Shown here in pieces: positions 1,456 to 43,040 of a DNA stretch of 50,922 nt. The notes beneath the pieces are model-generated. The model did no database searches, was not told where the DNA came from, and saw only the letters and a program-made list of their open reading frames with translations. Positions within the stretch are counted from its first letter, which is position 1. Each line of letters starts with the position of its first letter. A program made the position numbers and the translations under genes. The stretch is from assembly GCA_016838885.1 (NCBI GenBank), contig JAEKNW010000224.1:1-50922 (forward strand), written 5' to 3'. Origin of the DNA: Candidatus Cloacimonadota bacterium (GTDB taxonomy: Bacteria; Cloacimonadota; Cloacimonadia; Cloacimonadales; JAFGVF01).

Positions 1456-1560
1456 TTTAATAATTTAAGAGTTTAATAATTTAAGAGTTTAATAATTTAA
1501 GAGTTTAATGATTTAAGAGTTTAATGATTTAAGAGTTTAATGATTTAAGAGTTTAAATTG
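1456..1560. repeat. 16-bp tandem array: 3 x TTTAATAATTTAAGAG then 3 x TTTAATGATTTAAGAG plus a partial unit
   Basis: Read directly; units at 1456, 1472, 1488, 1504, 1520, 1536. Confidence 0.9.
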
Positions 1561-1609: not shown

Positions 1610-1975
1610 ATGTATACTTATTCGTTTGAGAAACTTGATTTTTGGACTGACTTAAGATTATTTATTAGTGATATTTATAAAGCTACTAATAAATACCCAA
1701 AATCTGAGAATTACTGTTTAATCGACCAGATTAGAAGAGCAGTAATATCTGTTAGTTCAAATTTAGCTGAAGGTTCATCAAGAACTTCATTTAAAGATCA
1801 AGCTCATTTCTATCAGATAGCATTTTCAAGTCTTATGGAAGTATTAAGCCAGTTGATAGTTTCTCATGACTTAAATTATATAACTGATGATGAATATTTT
1901 AGTTTAAGAAAAAGAATCGATTTTATCGCAAGTAGATTAAGTTTACTCAGAAAAGACAGATTAAACCTGAAATAA
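1610..1975 (+). CDS. four-helix-bundle protein (S23/IVP, 23S rRNA intervening-sequence protein family)
   Basis: FEKLDFWTDLRLFISDIYKATNKYPKSENYCLIDQIRRAVISVSSNLAEGSSR: typical of the S23/IVP family; SD-like GAGG upstream of ATG 1610. Confidence 0.85.
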   Translation: MYTYSFEKLDFWTDLRLFISDIYKATNKYPKSENYCLIDQIRRAVISVSSNLAEGSSRTSFKDQAHFYQIAFSSLMEVLSQLIVSHDLNYITDDEYFSLRKRIDFIASRLSLLRKDRLNLK

Positions 1976-1988
1976 ATAGAGTCTTAAA

Positions 1989-2380
1989 CATTCGCGAAGC
2001 GAATAATTAAATTATTAAACTCTTAAATTATTGAATTGATTTTTTTGTTTATTAAAGTCTTATACATTCGCGAAGCGAATAATTAAATTATTAAACTCTT
2101 AAATTATTAAATTGATATTTACCATCGTGTGGTAAAGAAAAAGTGCTTCAGATTATAGCAATCTGTAAGTCATAGGGCGAAGCTTGCTTATTTTTAACCA
2201 CCAGGTTTAAGGATACAAAGTTACAAAGGTAGAATTAAATACATAGAACACACGTAACTTGGTTTGAACAGATATTAACTGATAAGAGATACTATATTTA
2301 ATATATAAAGTAAAGATTAAATTATTAAACATTTGCGAAGCGAATAATTAAATTATTAAACCTTTAAATCATTAAATTAA
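1989..2380. repeat. three dispersed copies of ACATTCGCGAAGCGAATAATTAAATTATTAAACTCTTAAATTATT (1989, 2064, ~2329)
   Basis: Near-identical copies read directly; each contains the small hairpin ATTCGC-GAA-GCGAAT (ATTTGC in copy 3). Confidence 0.85.
2143..2190 (+). promoter_or_regulatory. JUMPstart/ops-like structured element, copy 1
   Basis: GTGCTTCAGATTATAGCAATCTGTAAGTCATAGGGCGAAGCTTGCTTA; nested complementarity GCTTC/GAAGC and AGATT/AATCT. Confidence 0.5.
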
Positions 2381-31267: not shown

Positions 31268-31784
31268 AACACAAAATCACTAAATTTACACAAAAGCACT
31301 AACTAACTTAAAATAAGAAGATATGAAATGATTGAAGTTTCTAAAGAAAAGATGGATTACTTAAATGATTTAAGTAAGAAGATAGTTAACTGCATCTATA
31401 ATGTCCATAAAGAACTAGGTCCAGGTCTGTTAGAAAGAGCATATCAAATTAGCTTATGCCGAGAATTGGAGTTGTGCTATCTTCGTTATGAAAGTGAGAT
31501 TATCATCCCTTTGATTTATAAAGGCCAAAATATTGAATCAGGCTATAGATTAGATATTATTGTTGAAGATGAAATTATTATTGAATTAAAAGCAGTTGAT
31601 GAGATTAAACCTGTGTTTGGATCACAGCTCTTAACCTATCTTAGATTAAGTAAGAAGAAGCTTGGTTTATTGGTTAATTTCAATGTAAATAACATTGGAA
31701 CAGGAATAAAAAGAATTATTAATTAATTTTGTATTGGTGTGCATTTTTAGTGCTTTTGTGTTTAAGAATTAGTGTTTTTGTGTT
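31268..31784. repeat. inverted repeat AACACAAAATCACTAAATTTACACAAAAGCACTAA / TTAGTGCTTTTGTGTTTAAGAATTAGTGTTTTTGTGTT flanking a GxxExxY gene
   Basis: Left 31268-31302, right 31747-31784; arms are near reverse complements. Confidence 0.8.
31328..31726 (+). CDS. GxxExxY protein
   Basis: NCIYNVHKELGPGLLERAYQISLCREL; RLDIIVEDEIIIELKAVDE; QLLTYLRLSKKKLGLLVNFN. Confidence 0.9.
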   Translation: MIEVSKEKMDYLNDLSKKIVNCIYNVHKELGPGLLERAYQISLCRELELCYLRYESEIIIPLIYKGQNIESGYRLDIIVEDEIIIELKAVDEIKPVFGSQLLTYLRLSKKKLGLLVNFNVNNIGTGIKRIIN

Positions 31785-31800: not shown

Positions 31801-32997
31801 ATGTTAAAGTTTCAAGAAACAATAGATTTCATTCGTTCTATCTACAATACTCAGGATTTAATCCCTCTTCACGAGCCTCGTTTCTGGGGTAATGAGAAGA
31901 AATACTTGGAAGAGTGTATTGATTCTACCTTTGTCTCTTCTGTAGGGAAATTTGTTGATCAAATTGAAGTAGAGATAGCAAAATATACAGGTGCAAAAAA
32001 AGCTGTTGCTGTTGTGAATGGAACAGCTGCTTTACATATTGCTTTAAAGTTAGTTGGAGTAGAAGCAGGTACTGAAGTGATCACTCAACCGCTTACTTTT
32101 ATTGCAACTGCTAATGCGATTTCATATTGTGGGGCAAAGCCTATTTTCCTAGATGTGGATTTAGATACAATGGGTTTATCACCCATCGCTTTAAAGAGAT
32201 TTTTAGAAGAAGAAACAGTATGGGATAGCTCATCAAATAAACGATTAAACAAATTAACAAATAAACAAATTACTGCTTGTGTTCCAATGCACACCTTTGG
32301 ACATGCTTGCAGAATAGACGAGATAGTAGATATATGTAATGAATATAATATTCCAGTAGTGGAAGATTCTGCAGAATCTATAGGAACTTATTATAAAGAA
32401 AAGCATACCGGTACTTTTGGTAAAGTTGGCATATTGAGCTTTAATGGTAATAAAACTATCACTTCAGGTGGTGGTGGTATGATAATTACAGATGATGAAG
32501 AATTAGCAAAACAAGCTAAACACCTAACAACTACAGCTAAAATACCACACAAATGGGAATATAGACACGATCATATTGGTTATAATTACCGTATGCCTAA
32601 TATTAATGCTGCCCTTGCTTGTGCCCAATTAGAGCAATTAGATAGCTTTATTGAAAAGAAACGAGCTTTAGCAAAAAAATACTCTGATTTCTTCTTAACC
32701 TCAACCTCATCCTCAACCTCAACCTCAATCTCAACCTCAATCTCACCCTCAACCTTATCATTTTTCGTTGAACCAAAAAATTCTATCTCAAACTATTGGC
32801 TCAATGTTGTGATCTTAAAAAATCGAGAAGAGAGAGATTTATTCTTGAAAGAAACTAATGAAAATGGGGTAATGACAAGGCCTATTTGGACTTTGATGAA
32901 CAAATTAGAGATGTTTAGAGATTGCTACACAGATACATTGGAAAATGCTGAGTGGTTAGAAGATAGGGTCGTTAACATTTCAAGTTCAGTAATATGA
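31801..32997 (+). CDS. LegC-family DegT aminotransferase with a low-complexity repeat insert; ORF track starts at 31729 but ATG 31801 follows AAGGAG
   Basis: LIPLHEPRFWGNEKKYLEECIDSTFVSSVGKFVDQIE; LSFNGNKTITSGGGGMI; insert STSSSTSTSISTSISPST. Confidence 0.88.
   Translation: MLKFQETIDFIRSIYNTQDLIPLHEPRFWGNEKKYLEECIDSTFVSSVGKFVDQIEVEIAKYTGAKKAVAVVNGTAALHIALKLVGVEAGTEVITQPLTFIATANAISYCGAKPIFLDVDLDTMGLSPIALKRFLEEETVWDSSSNKRLNKLTNKQITACVPMHTFGHACRIDEIVDICNEYNIPVVEDSAESIGTYYKEKHTGTFGKVGILSFNGNKTITSGGGGMIITDDEELAKQAKHLTTTAKIPHKWEYRHDHIGYNYRMPNINAALACAQLEQLDSFIEKKRALAKKYSDFFLTSTSSSTSTSISTSISPSTLSFFVEPKNSISNYWLNVVILKNREERDLFLKETNENGVMTRPIWTLMNKLEMFRDCYTDTLENAEWLEDRVVNISSSVI
32694..32757. repeat. (AACCTC)n hexamer tract inside the LegC-like aminotransferase gene
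   Basis: ttaacctcaacctcatcctcaacctcaacctcaatctcaacctcaatctcaccctcaacctt. Confidence 0.9.
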
Positions 32998-33184
32998 GGT
33001 TGAGGTAGAGGTAGAGGTTGAGGCTGAGGTTAAGGTTGAGGTAGAGGTTGAGGTAGAGGTAGAGGTTGAGGTAGAGGCTGAGGCTGAGGTTGAGGTAGAG
33101 GCTGAGGTTGAGGTAGAGGTAGAGGTAGAGGTTGAGGTTGAGGTAGAGGCTGAGGTTGAGGTTAAGGTTGAGGTTGAGGAGGTT
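32998..33184. repeat. (GAGGTT/GAGGTA/GAGGCT)n hexamer array, ~31 units
   Basis: Read directly; + strand frame would encode EVEVEA, - strand TSTSTS; complementary to 32694-32757. Confidence 0.95.
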
Positions 33185-33186
33185 GT

Positions 33187-33543
33187 ATGTATAAAAGTTT
33201 TAGAGAGATGCCAGTATGGCAAAAAGCGATGGATTTATCTGTAGCTGTTTTTAATATTACTTTAGGATTACCTAAAGCTGAGGATTATGGTTTAATATCT
33301 CAGATAAGAAGGTCTGCTAATAGTGTATCAGCAAATATAGCAGAGGGATTTGGAAGATACTCCAACAGGGATAAATGTCAGTTTTATGTTATAGCAAGAG
33401 GTTCAGCTTATGAAACTCAAAGTCACTTGATTTATGGTCACAATGTTAAATACTTTGAAACAGCGATAGTAGAAAAATTAATACATGATTATGATAGTTT
33501 GATTTATGATTTGAATAAAATGATGAAAGTGGTTAGAGGTTGA
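33187..33543 (+). CDS. four-helix-bundle protein (S23/IVP family)
   Basis: FREMPVWQKAMDLSVAVFNITLGLPKAEDYGLISQIRRSANSVSANIAEGFGRYSNRDKCQFYVIARGSAYETQSHL. Confidence 0.92.
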   Translation: MYKSFREMPVWQKAMDLSVAVFNITLGLPKAEDYGLISQIRRSANSVSANIAEGFGRYSNRDKCQFYVIARGSAYETQSHLIYGHNVKYFETAIVEKLIHDYDSLIYDLNKMMKVVRG

Positions 33544-33593
33544 GGTTAAGGTTAAGGTTGAGGTTAAGGTTAAGGTTGAGGTTAAGGTTGAGA
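33536..33593. repeat. second (GAGGTT/AAGGTT)n hexamer array downstream of the four-helix-bundle gene
   Basis: gaggttgaggttaaggttaaggttgaggttaaggttaaggttgaggttaaggttgag. Confidence 0.92.
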
Positions 33594-33606: not shown

Positions 33607-34158
33607 ATGTTTGAAAAATTTAGGATTTACTTAAGAGCTTTGGAAATAGAAGATTATAAGACTACTTTCGAATGGCGAAAAGATTTAGATATCCAATATG
33701 GTTTTAATGATAAGAGAGTTTTTGTCTCCTCTGAGAATGAAAAAAAATGGATTGAGTCTGTAATAAATGATTTTAGTAAAGTCTCAGTGGGGGTATGTTT
33801 AAAAGAAAACGATACACTAATTGGTCTTAGTTTTTTAAAGGATATTGATTTACATAATCGTAATGCACAAACAGCATCAATGATTGGAGAAAGGACTTAT
33901 TGGGGTAAGGGATTTGCAACTGAGGCAAAACTTCTTATGCTTCATTATGCATTTATTGATCGAGGTTTAGAAAGAATCTGGACTAATATACTTGTTGATA
34001 ACTATGCTTCCATCAAGATGTGTGAGAATTGTGGCTATAAGAAAGAAGGTATATTAAGGAAAGCAAAATACTCCCAAGGAGTTTTGAAAGATGTCTATTA
34101 TTATGCTGTCATAAAAGAAGATTTTCTTAAAATATGGGAAAAGTTTAATGAGTTATAA
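33607..34158 (+). CDS. GNAT family N-acetyltransferase (RimJ/PseH-like)
   Basis: FRIYLRALEIEDYKTTFEWRKD; GERTYWGKGFATEAKLLMLHYAF; NYASIKMCENCGYKKEGILR. Confidence 0.9.
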   Translation: MFEKFRIYLRALEIEDYKTTFEWRKDLDIQYGFNDKRVFVSSENEKKWIESVINDFSKVSVGVCLKENDTLIGLSFLKDIDLHNRNAQTASMIGERTYWGKGFATEAKLLMLHYAFIDRGLERIWTNILVDNYASIKMCENCGYKKEGILRKAKYSQGVLKDVYYYAVIKEDFLKIWEKFNEL

Positions 34159-41033: not shown

Positions 41034-41812
41034 CACAGATTTACACTGATTAAGAAGAACTTTATTAAATATATTAATCCTTATCTTTTATAACACATTT
41101 TATTTTGGTTTACGAGATGTATATCTATATAATTGTCTATAAATCTATACCAAAACAATGCTAACCTATTATATTTAAAGACTAATAAGTATTAATGTTT
41201 TTATAAATCAGTGCTAATCTGTGTAATCTGTGGACAAAAAGAGGAAATTATGAGTGGTTATATGTTTGAAGAACAAACCTACAAAATAATAGGGGCGTGT
41301 ATGGAAGTACACAAGCAATTAGGATGTGGGTTCTTGGAAGCTGTTTATCAAGAAGCTTTAGGGATTGAGTTTAATAAGCAAAACATACCCTATCAGAGAG
41401 AAGTTAGTATAAATATTCATTATAAAGATAAATTATTAGATAAAAAATATATAGCAGATTTTATATGTTACGATAATATAATTGTCGAATTAAAGGCATT
41501 AAATAATATTACTAATGATCATCATGCTCAAGTAATAAATTACTTGAAAGCTACTAGTTATCCAGTTGGATTGTTAATTAATTTTGGTGAAAGATCATTA
41601 TATCATAAAAGATTAATATTATATTAGTAATTTCTTATAGTCCACAGATTACACAGATTTACACTGATTTTGAAGAAATAAAAATAAAATAGAAATACAT
41701 AAGATTTGAATTTCCACATAAATTACTCAGTTTTTACATTTTTTTGCGAAGTGATGTATTATTTTTTTAAATATTTTTCTTAATCTGTGTTAATCAGTGT
41801 AATCTGTGGACC
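41034..41812. repeat. two consecutive inverted-repeat pairs of the CCACAGATTACACAGATTTACACTGATT type on either side of a GxxExxY gene
   Basis: Left arms 41034-41061 and 41641-41669; right arms 41206-41235 and 41781-41812. Confidence 0.88.
41250..41627 (+). CDS. GxxExxY protein; ORF track start 41211 lies inside the repeat arm, ATG 41250 follows GAGGAAATT
   Basis: [70 protein letters not shown]. Confidence 0.92.
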
Positions 41813-41831
41813 CAAAAAAGAAGGAAGTTGT

Positions 41832-43040
41832 ATGAAGAAACTCAAGGTTATAACGATTGTCGGTACTCGTCCCGAGATAATCCGTCTATCCGAAGTAATG
41901 AAACTATTAGATAAATATACAGAACACATAACAGTTCATACTGGTCAAAACTACGACTATGAGCTAAATGAGATATTCTATAAAGATTTAGATTTAAGGA
42001 AACCTGATTATTACTTAGGGGTGGATACATCTTCCTTGGGTAAGGTTTTAGGTGAGACCTTGATTAAGGTGGAAGAGGTCTTTCTTAAAGAAAAGCCTGA
42101 TGCTGTTTTGATCTTGGGTGATACTAATGCTTCTATTGCCGGGATTATTGCCAAAAGAATGAAAATTCCAATTTTTCACATGGAAGCAGGAAATAGATCT
42201 TTTGATTTTAATGTTCCGGAAGAGATCAATAGAAGAATTATTGATCATGTAGCTGATTTTAACTTAGTATATACTGAAAATTCACGCAGACATCTCTTAT
42301 CAGAAGGTTTACCTCATAGACATATTTATGTAACCGGTTCTCCAATGTATGAAGTGCTCCATAAGAATATGGATAAAATAAAAACATCTAATATCTTAGA
42401 TGAATTAGGCTTAAAAGAAAAAGAGTATTTTATTGTTTCTACTCATAGAGAAGAGAATGTAGATAATCCCGAAAATCTAAGAGAAATCTTAAATACTTTA
42501 AATCTCATAGCTGAGACTTATAAAGTACCAGTGGTAGTTTCAACTCATCCTCGCACTCGAAAACGCTTAGAAGCATTGAACTCCCTTTTTATTGAGAGGG
42601 GTGGATGCGAAGCAGATGGGGAGAGTAACCCCCTTTCCTTGAGAGGGGTGGATGCAAAGCAGACGGGGAGAGTAACTCTTCACCCATTATTGCAATTTCT
42701 AAAACCCTTCGGTTTCTTCGACTACAACAAACTCCAAATGCATGCTATCTGTGCAATCTCTGACAGTGGGACTATAAGTGAAGAATCTTCTATGCTAAAA
42801 TTCCCTGCTGTAACAATTAGAAACTCTCTGGAAAGACCGGAAGCTATGGATTATGGCTCAATTATCTTGACAGGTTTGAAATCTGATGTAGTTCTTAATT
42901 CTATAAAAATTGCTGTTGAGGAAAATATGAAATTTAAACAATGCCCGGAATATGAAACAGATAATACCTCATATCGGGTTTTGAAAATAATTATGGGATT
43001 GAGTGGATTGAAGAATAGATGGTTGGGGATTAATGATTAA
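41832..43040 (+). CDS. capG: UDP-N-acetylglucosamine 2-epimerase (CapG/FnlC/WbjD-type) with an in-frame repeat insertion
   Basis: KVITIVGTRPEIIRLSEVMKLLD; HTGQNYDYELNEIFY; HMEAGNRSFD; SDSGTISEESSML; insertion at ~42583-42676. Confidence 0.9.
   Translation: MKKLKVITIVGTRPEIIRLSEVMKLLDKYTEHITVHTGQNYDYELNEIFYKDLDLRKPDYYLGVDTSSLGKVLGETLIKVEEVFLKEKPDAVLILGDTNASIAGIIAKRMKIPIFHMEAGNRSFDFNVPEEINRRIIDHVADFNLVYTENSRRHLLSEGLPHRHIYVTGSPMYEVLHKNMDKIKTSNILDELGLKEKEYFIVSTHREENVDNPENLREILNTLNLIAETYKVPVVVSTHPRTRKRLEALNSLFIERGGCEADGESNPLSLRGVDAKQTGRVTLHPLLQFLKPFGFFDYNKLQMHAICAISDSGTISEESSMLKFPAVTIRNSLERPEAMDYGSIILTGLKSDVVLNSIKIAVEENMKFKQCPEYETDNTSYRVLKIIMGLSGLKNRWLGIND
42583..42676. repeat. two tandem 47-bp repeats within capG: CCCTTTNNATTGAGAGGGGTGGATGCRAAGCAGAYGGGGAGAGTAAC
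   Basis: Copy 1 42583-42629, copy 2 42631-42676; period 47 measured at TTGAGAGG (42592 vs 42639). Confidence 0.92.

What the first reader, a model, noticed from the sequence alone, without database searches (positions are those of the whole stretch)
32694..33593. Hexamer repeats invade a LegC-like aminotransferase and flank an S23/IVP gene
Seen: an (AACCTC)n tract encodes STSSSTSTSISTSISPST inside the aminotransferase between FF and LSFFVEPKNSISNYW. After the stop, ~187 bp of the complementary (GAGGTT/A)n array leads into the S23/IVP gene, followed by a second array. The coding insert and downstream array could base-pair around the last ~240 bp of the aminotransferase gene. The element has therefore placed one arm inside an essential-looking biosynthetic gene while keeping it in frame.
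Basis: partly seen in the sequence, partly recalled or inferred. Interest (0 to 1): 0.6.

Follow-up and report, generated by a model that had tools for sequence, protein, structure and literature searches.

The report
S23 genes boxed by repeat arrays
A short repeat sits in frame in a flexible loop of a sugar aminotransferase, and the same repeat brackets a neighbouring S23 gene; S23 genes in many unrelated bacteria turn out to be framed in this way, which suggests a small mobile element that has not been recognised.

Summary
Confirmed: a LegC-family aminotransferase (31801-32997) carries an in-frame AACCTC hexamer array (32697-32755). A GAGGTT array (32995-33179), an S23/IVP gene (33187-33543) and a second array (33531-33589) follow. 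In a predicted RNA fold the coding insert pairs with the downstream array.

Orthologues show the insert is derived: the loop is 27-28 residues in 79 of 84 sequences and 43 here. The model puts it in a disordered loop after a helix, with active-site residues intact. Frame switching is excluded because the unit is 6 bp.

The larger result is general. S23 genes are usually bracketed by inverted, locus-specific short tandem arrays, mostly of period 7, G-rich before the start and complementary after the stop. This holds for 59 of 89 S23 loci in this order (score 30 or more) against 1 of 150 control genes. It recurs in Gammaproteobacteria, Bacteroidota and cyanobacterial plasmids. One junction is empty in most genomes of a family and holds three S23 types with different arms in four. 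Close S23 relatives at different sites share arm units (7 of 8 pairs at 70% identity or more).

I read the locus as an atypical IVS-like S23 element plus a dispersed copy of its repeat in the neighbouring gene. What moves these elements is unknown. S23 resembles Avd of retroelements.

The parts
31801..32997 (+). LegC-family (DegT/DnrJ/EryC1) aminotransferase gene carrying the insert
   Evidence: TIGR04181 533.8 bits, PF01041; invariant lysine in SFNGNK kept
32697..32755 (+). in-frame AACCTC hexamer array; the loop is about 15-16 residues longer than in orthologues
   Evidence: TRF; loop 43 aa against 27-28 in 79 of 84 sequences; pLDDT below 50 at residues 303-316
32995..33179 (+). GAGGTT array upstream of S23; supplies the TGA stop of the aminotransferase; GAGGAGG Shine-Dalgarno-like run at its end
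   Evidence: TRF, sequence
33187..33543 (+). S23 / 23S rRNA intervening-sequence protein gene (four-helix bundle)
   Evidence: PF05635 E 6.8e-34, TIGR02436, PDB 2gsc
33531..33589 (+). second array (GGTTAAGGTTGAGGTTAA), overlapping the S23 stop codon, same orientation as the first
   Evidence: TRF; direct score 78, inverted 20
33607..34158 (+). GNAT acetyltransferase, right boundary; follows the aminotransferase directly in G028 and closely in G011, which lack S23 here (empty site)
   Evidence: PF13302; junction comparison
1610..1975 (+). second S23/IVP gene in the window
   Evidence: PF05635 E 6.4e-30
1456..1556 (+). 5' arm of the second S23 gene: TTTAATAATTTAAGAG x6.3
   Evidence: TRF; inverted score 70
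1980..2120 (+). 3' arm of the second S23 gene, containing CTCTTAAATTATTAAA (reverse complement of the 5' unit)
   Evidence: TRF, sequence

Best explanation
The locus holds an atypical, IVS-like S23 element that inserted into the aminotransferase-acetyltransferase junction of a polysaccharide operon, plus a copy of its repeat in the neighbouring enzyme. The general element is an S23 gene between two short tandem arrays: a G-rich array before the start and its reverse complement after the stop. In RNA the arrays can pair into a stem that encloses the S23 message, like the stem of the 23S rRNA intervening sequence. Arrays and gene move together to new intergenic sites. The arrays' units then change quickly but stay matched on the two sides. 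Array units also spread as solo copies; a few land in coding sequence and survive where the unit length is a multiple of three and the site is a flexible loop or linker, as in this aminotransferase. Shown: anatomy, statistics, empty and filled sites, co-travel of arms with close S23 relatives, absence of the insert from orthologues. Inferred: that the stem forms in cells, that it is processed (for example by RNase III) or bound by S23, and that S23 takes part in movement, perhaps with a reverse transcriptase acting in trans.
For: Matched inverted arms at 47% of 89 S23 loci (score 40 or more) against 0.8% of mismatched flank pairs; at score 30 or more 59/89 against GNAT 1/29, aminotransferase 0/99, DUF1015 0/22. 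5' arm richer in G than C in 55 of 60. Same in Gammaproteobacteria plus a few Bacteroidota loci, 73% against 2% mismatched, in cyanobacterial and Riemerella plasmids 4/8 and, more weakly, in Bacteroidota and others. Predicted pairing between flanks, median 35 against 20 with shuffled 3' flank; GNAT control 6. Junction M18-DUF1015 empty (mostly 21-69 bp) in most of the family, filled with S23 of three types and different arms in G011, G021, G044 and G039. Arms shared by 7 of 8 pairs of 70% or more identical S23 at different sites. AT-GNAT junction without S23 in G028 and G011. Parallel in-frame insert in G011 with the S23 arm unit. Coxiella 23S IVS has an S23 ORF, a 28-bp terminal stem and a heptamer array before S23 (PMC4990558). 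S23 fold matches Avd and the DGR complex at TM about 0.8.
Against: At this locus the two S23 arrays are direct, not inverted. The hexamer is dispersed in genes without S23. In G073 the unit GGTTGAGAG has 128 matches although no S23 gene was found, so array spread does not need S23 in the same genome. Variant order is not mirrored between arms (1 of 41 loci below 0.05), so arms are not simple copies of each other. Over all pairs arm similarity does not track S23 similarity (permutation 496/2000). Array density is only weakly higher in genomes with S23 (2.3 against 0.8 per 100 kb; not significant without G011).
Confidence: 0.6

Rival explanations
1. The arrays are ordinary microsatellites made by replication slippage at independent places; the aminotransferase insert and the S23-flanking arrays share a unit only because this genome favours it.
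For: The hexamer occurs at 7 places in this genome and five of them include low-complexity insertions in coding sequence. The unit is nearly confined to this genome among 105.
Against: Two sites 240 bp apart among 7 in 3.3 Mb (about 0.1%). Matched inverted arms at S23 but not at control genes. The same arm units accompany close S23 relatives at different sites.
Confidence: 0.2
2. The inserts are solo copies of a dispersed repeat family with its own unknown movement, as for STRR or MITE-like repeats; S23 genes are passengers that sit between two copies.
For: GGTTGAGAG has 203 matches in G011, 0-2 in sister genomes of its genus, and 128 in G073 without S23. Solo inverted arrays without S23 occur (G031). 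GxxExxY genes have similar flanks, 20/29.
Against: Strong and specific link of S23 with matched inverted arms in several phyla; arms travel with S23.
Confidence: 0.3
3. Contingency locus: array length change switches the aminotransferase on and off.
For: Tandem array within a polysaccharide gene.
Against: A 6-bp unit keeps the frame at any copy number. No strain-level data.
Confidence: 0.02
4. Assembly artefact joining repeats.
For: Draft genome in 350 contigs; array of 185 bp.
Against: Gene order on both sides is conserved in G028 and G011. The parallel case lies in a one-contig genome, G011. The insert keeps the frame.
Confidence: 0.03

Closest known systems
S23-bearing intervening sequences (IVS) of 23S rRNA, e.g. 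Coxiella (PMC4990558)
   Same: S23 ORF between complementary ends that form a stem; short tandem repeats just before the S23 start that vary between strains
   Different: Here the element lies between protein genes, not in rRNA; arms are tandem arrays with a unit peculiar to each locus; processing is not known
Short tandemly repeated repetitive (STRR) sequences of cyanobacteria (PMC2670836), GGGAATC of Xanthomonas (PMC4692102), TAACTGA of Beggiatoaceae (PMC4679880)
   Same: Short units of about 7 bp, dispersed mainly between genes, genome-specific
   Different: The passages read do not tie the repeats to S23 genes; here arrays come as inverted pairs around S23
Rickettsia palindromic elements and other MITEs inserted in frame (from my own knowledge)
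   Same: Selfish repeat tolerated inside protein genes at flexible places
   Different: No palindromic core of 100-150 bp; the insert is a plain hexamer array
REPIN-RAYT (from my own knowledge)
   Same: A single gene flanked by inverted short repeats that also occur dispersed in the genome
   Different: S23 is not a transposase (no Y1 domain); units differ by locus
Avd of diversity-generating retroelements
   Same: Same four-helix fold, TM about 0.8
   Different: No reverse transcriptase, template repeat or variable repeat beside this S23 gene

Membership tests
23S rRNA IVS element with S23p | encodes an S23/IVP protein | tested here: met
   PF05635 and TIGR02436
23S rRNA IVS element with S23p | inserted in a 23S rRNA gene | tested here: not met
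   flanked by aminotransferase and acetyltransferase genes
23S rRNA IVS element with S23p | complementary termini forming a stem around the ORF | tested here: inconclusive
   window locus direct 78, inverted 20; the complementary array lies upstream inside the aminotransferase; 59/89 relatives have inverted arms
23S rRNA IVS element with S23p | short tandem repeats before the S23 start | tested here: met
   array 32995-33179 ends 7 bp before the start
23S rRNA IVS element with S23p | excised from RNA by RNase III | not testable with these tools
   no RNA data
STRR-type dispersed repeat | short unit in tandem, dispersed through one genome | tested here: met
   7 places in G000, almost none in 104 other genomes
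STRR-type dispersed repeat | unit of 7 bp, mainly between genes | tested here: not met
   unit 6 bp; 5 of 7 places include coding sequence
Phase-variable simple sequence repeat | unit length not a multiple of three | tested here: not met
   6-bp unit
REPIN-RAYT | Y1 (RAYT) transposase gene | tested here: not met
   the gene between the arrays matches only S23-family models in Pfam and NCBIfam, and S23 or Avd structures best in Foldseek
Diversity-generating retroelement accessory gene | adjacent reverse transcriptase, template and variable repeats | tested here: not met
   neighbours are aminotransferase and GNAT; a DGR-like locus is elsewhere in the genome (L012)

The most novel reading that the evidence does not exclude
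S23/IVP proteins are the RNA-binding partner of a widespread mobile element whose ends are rapidly changing complementary tandem arrays. Like Avd, the S23 pentamer would bind the array hairpin and hand the RNA to a reverse transcriptase acting in trans. This would explain both the rRNA intervening sequences and at least part of the genome-specific short tandem repeats of cyanobacteria, Xanthomonas and Beggiatoaceae.
Probability: 0.2. Interest if true: 0.85.

Novelty: new variant of a known kind. Interest (0 to 1): 0.62.

Why it matters
S23 proteins have no known role although two structures are solved, and neither the origin of rRNA intervening sequences nor that of short tandem repetitive sequences is settled. 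If S23 genes as a class carry matched tandem arms and move with them, both questions become testable with one element. The aminotransferase shows the cost and limits of such repeats: two loops of the same enzyme took in-frame repeats in unrelated bacteria.

Tried and rejected
Snap-back or block copying of one arm into the other: rejected, because the order of unit variants is not mirrored. Arm units following S23 phylogeny at all depths: rejected, the permutation test is not significant and the signal is limited to close relatives. S23 as a requirement for array spread within a genome: not supported (G073). Each S23 of G011 having its own dispersed family: clear for one of the four tested, weak for another. 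Frame switching: rejected by unit length. Literature for S23 genes with tandem or inverted repeats outside rRNA: nothing found in the open-access library held; subscription papers could not be searched. The whole genome was not available as a file, so arrays were sampled in stretches.

Full report
WHAT IS THERE. The aminotransferase at 31801-32997 belongs to the LegC family (TIGR04181, 533.8 bits against a cut-off of 420). It contains an in-frame AACCTC array (32697-32755). The gene ends on a TGA that is part of a 185-bp GAGGTT array (32995-33179). The S23/IVP gene (33187-33543; PF05635) starts 7 bp after that array and ends inside a third array (33531-33589). All three arrays have a period-6 self-match of 0.85, far above shuffles. 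The coding insert and the GAGGTT array are predicted to pair in RNA around the last part of the aminotransferase message.

THE INSERT IS DERIVED AND TOLERATED. Among 84 LegC-like sequences the loop is 27-28 residues in 79 and 43 here. A structure model (mean pLDDT 90.6) puts residues 303-316 below 50, after a long helix and before the next strand. Invariant residues including the SFNGNK lysine are kept. The unit is 6 bp, so copy-number change cannot shift the frame. The same two loops of this enzyme took in-frame repeats elsewhere: an AACAAGG and a GAACAAC array in a Flavobacteriales genome (L194), repeats in Bacteroidales (L197, L207), and an inverted CTCTCAACC array in G011.

THE HEXAMER IS A GENOME-SPECIFIC DISPERSED REPEAT. 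It occurs at seven places in this genome and hardly at all in 104 other genomes of the order. Besides this locus it lies in frame in dxs (SSSSTSTSTSTSV), dnaX and a biotin-carrier linker, and in a signal peptide, and between genes at two places. So the link with S23 is positional (240 bp; about 0.1% by chance) but not exclusive. G011 shows the same pattern with another unit: GGTTGAGAG flanks its S23 gene, sits inside the orthologous aminotransferase, and is dispersed over the genome (203 matches, against 0-2 in sister genomes of the genus).

S23 GENES ARE GENERALLY BOXED BY MATCHED ARRAYS. I used 89 S23 loci from the order. Local alignment of 350 bp upstream with the reverse complement of 350 bp downstream gives a median of 37 against 18 for mismatched flank pairs; 47% reach 40 against 0.8%. 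At a threshold of 30 the counts are 59/89 for S23, 1/29 for GNAT, 0/99 for aminotransferases and 0/22 for DUF1015 genes. The 5' arm is richer in G than C in 55 of 60. Where a tandem period is clear it is mostly 7. The same anatomy appears in Gammaproteobacteria (73% at 30 or more against 2%; 33 loci, 4 of them Bacteroidota), in cyanobacterial and Riemerella plasmids (4 of 8 at 40 or more) and, more weakly, in Bacteroidota, Parcubacteria and others (4 of 30 at 40 or more). The window's own S23 locus is atypical: its two arrays are direct. The other S23 gene in the window (1610-1975) is typical, with inverted arms.

THE ELEMENTS MOVE. At the M18 peptidase-DUF1015 junction most genomes of the family have 21-69 bp and no S23. 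G011 and G021 have one S23 type (89% identical), G044 and G039 two others (34-49% to the rest), each with different arms. G021 still carries an outer array of the G044 type outside its inner arms. G031 has inverted arms with no S23. S23 genes at different sites share arm units when at least 70% identical (7 of 8 pairs), about half the time at 60-70%, and rarely below. At the window locus the aminotransferase and acetyltransferase genes are 4 bp apart in G028 and close in G011, so the S23 block is best read as an insertion.

HOW IT MAY WORK. The Coxiella 23S intervening sequence has the same layout: an S23 ORF in the loop of a 28-bp terminal stem, with heptamer repeats just before the S23 start that differ in number between strains (PMC4990558). 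I infer that the arrays serve as a stem whose pairing survives slippage in any register. The arms share unit variants but not their order, which fits slippage with selection for pairing better than copying of whole arms. The S23 fold matches Avd and the DGR reverse-transcriptase complex at TM about 0.8 although sequence identity is only 7-10%. That makes RNA binding and help from a reverse transcriptase plausible, but nothing here tests it. A genome with many arrays and no detected S23 (G073) shows that array spread does not need S23 in the same genome.

LIMITS. Gene content and the size of G011 suggest Cloacimonadota, which is my inference. Many are draft metagenome assemblies in which array lengths may be wrong. 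Loci are related, so counts are not independent. The literature library holds open-access papers only.

Noticed in passing
window 1610-1975 with 1456-1556 and 1980-2120: A second S23/IVP gene in the window has typical inverted arms (TTTAATAATTTAAGAG before, CTCTTAAATTATTAAA after).
   Followed up: yes
window 41211-41627 and 31328-31726: GxxExxY (PF13366) genes are also bracketed by short repeats (CACAGATTA-type; CACGAAATCACTAAATT/AATTAGTGTTTTTGTG). In 29 loci 20 have matched inverted flanks, so this family may be a second cargo of the same kind of element.
   Followed up: partly
window about 42580-42690: The UDP-GlcNAc 2-epimerase gene (41787-43040) appears to have an in-frame insert of two tandem copies of a roughly 47-bp repeat (GAGAGGGGTGGATGCGAAGCAGATGGGGAGAGTAAC), with another match on contig C260.
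   Followed up: partly
L012 (G000:C215): A diversity-generating retroelement-like locus: formylglycine-enzyme-like target gene, weak S23-family (Avd-like) gene and reverse transcriptase.
   Followed up: no
L293, L297, L296, L298: The AACCTC hexamer lies in frame in dxs, dnaX, a biotin-carrier linker and a signal peptide of the same genome.
   Followed up: partly
G444: A 1.5 Mb genome with about ten near-identical weak S23-family genes on one strand; possibly rRNA intervening sequences.
   Followed up: no
G073: 128 matches of the GGTTGAGAG unit although no S23 gene was found.
   Followed up: no
L390 (G031): Solo inverted arms (ATGGACAAA-type) at the junction where sister genomes carry S23 genes; the stretch contains two Ns.
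   Followed up: partly
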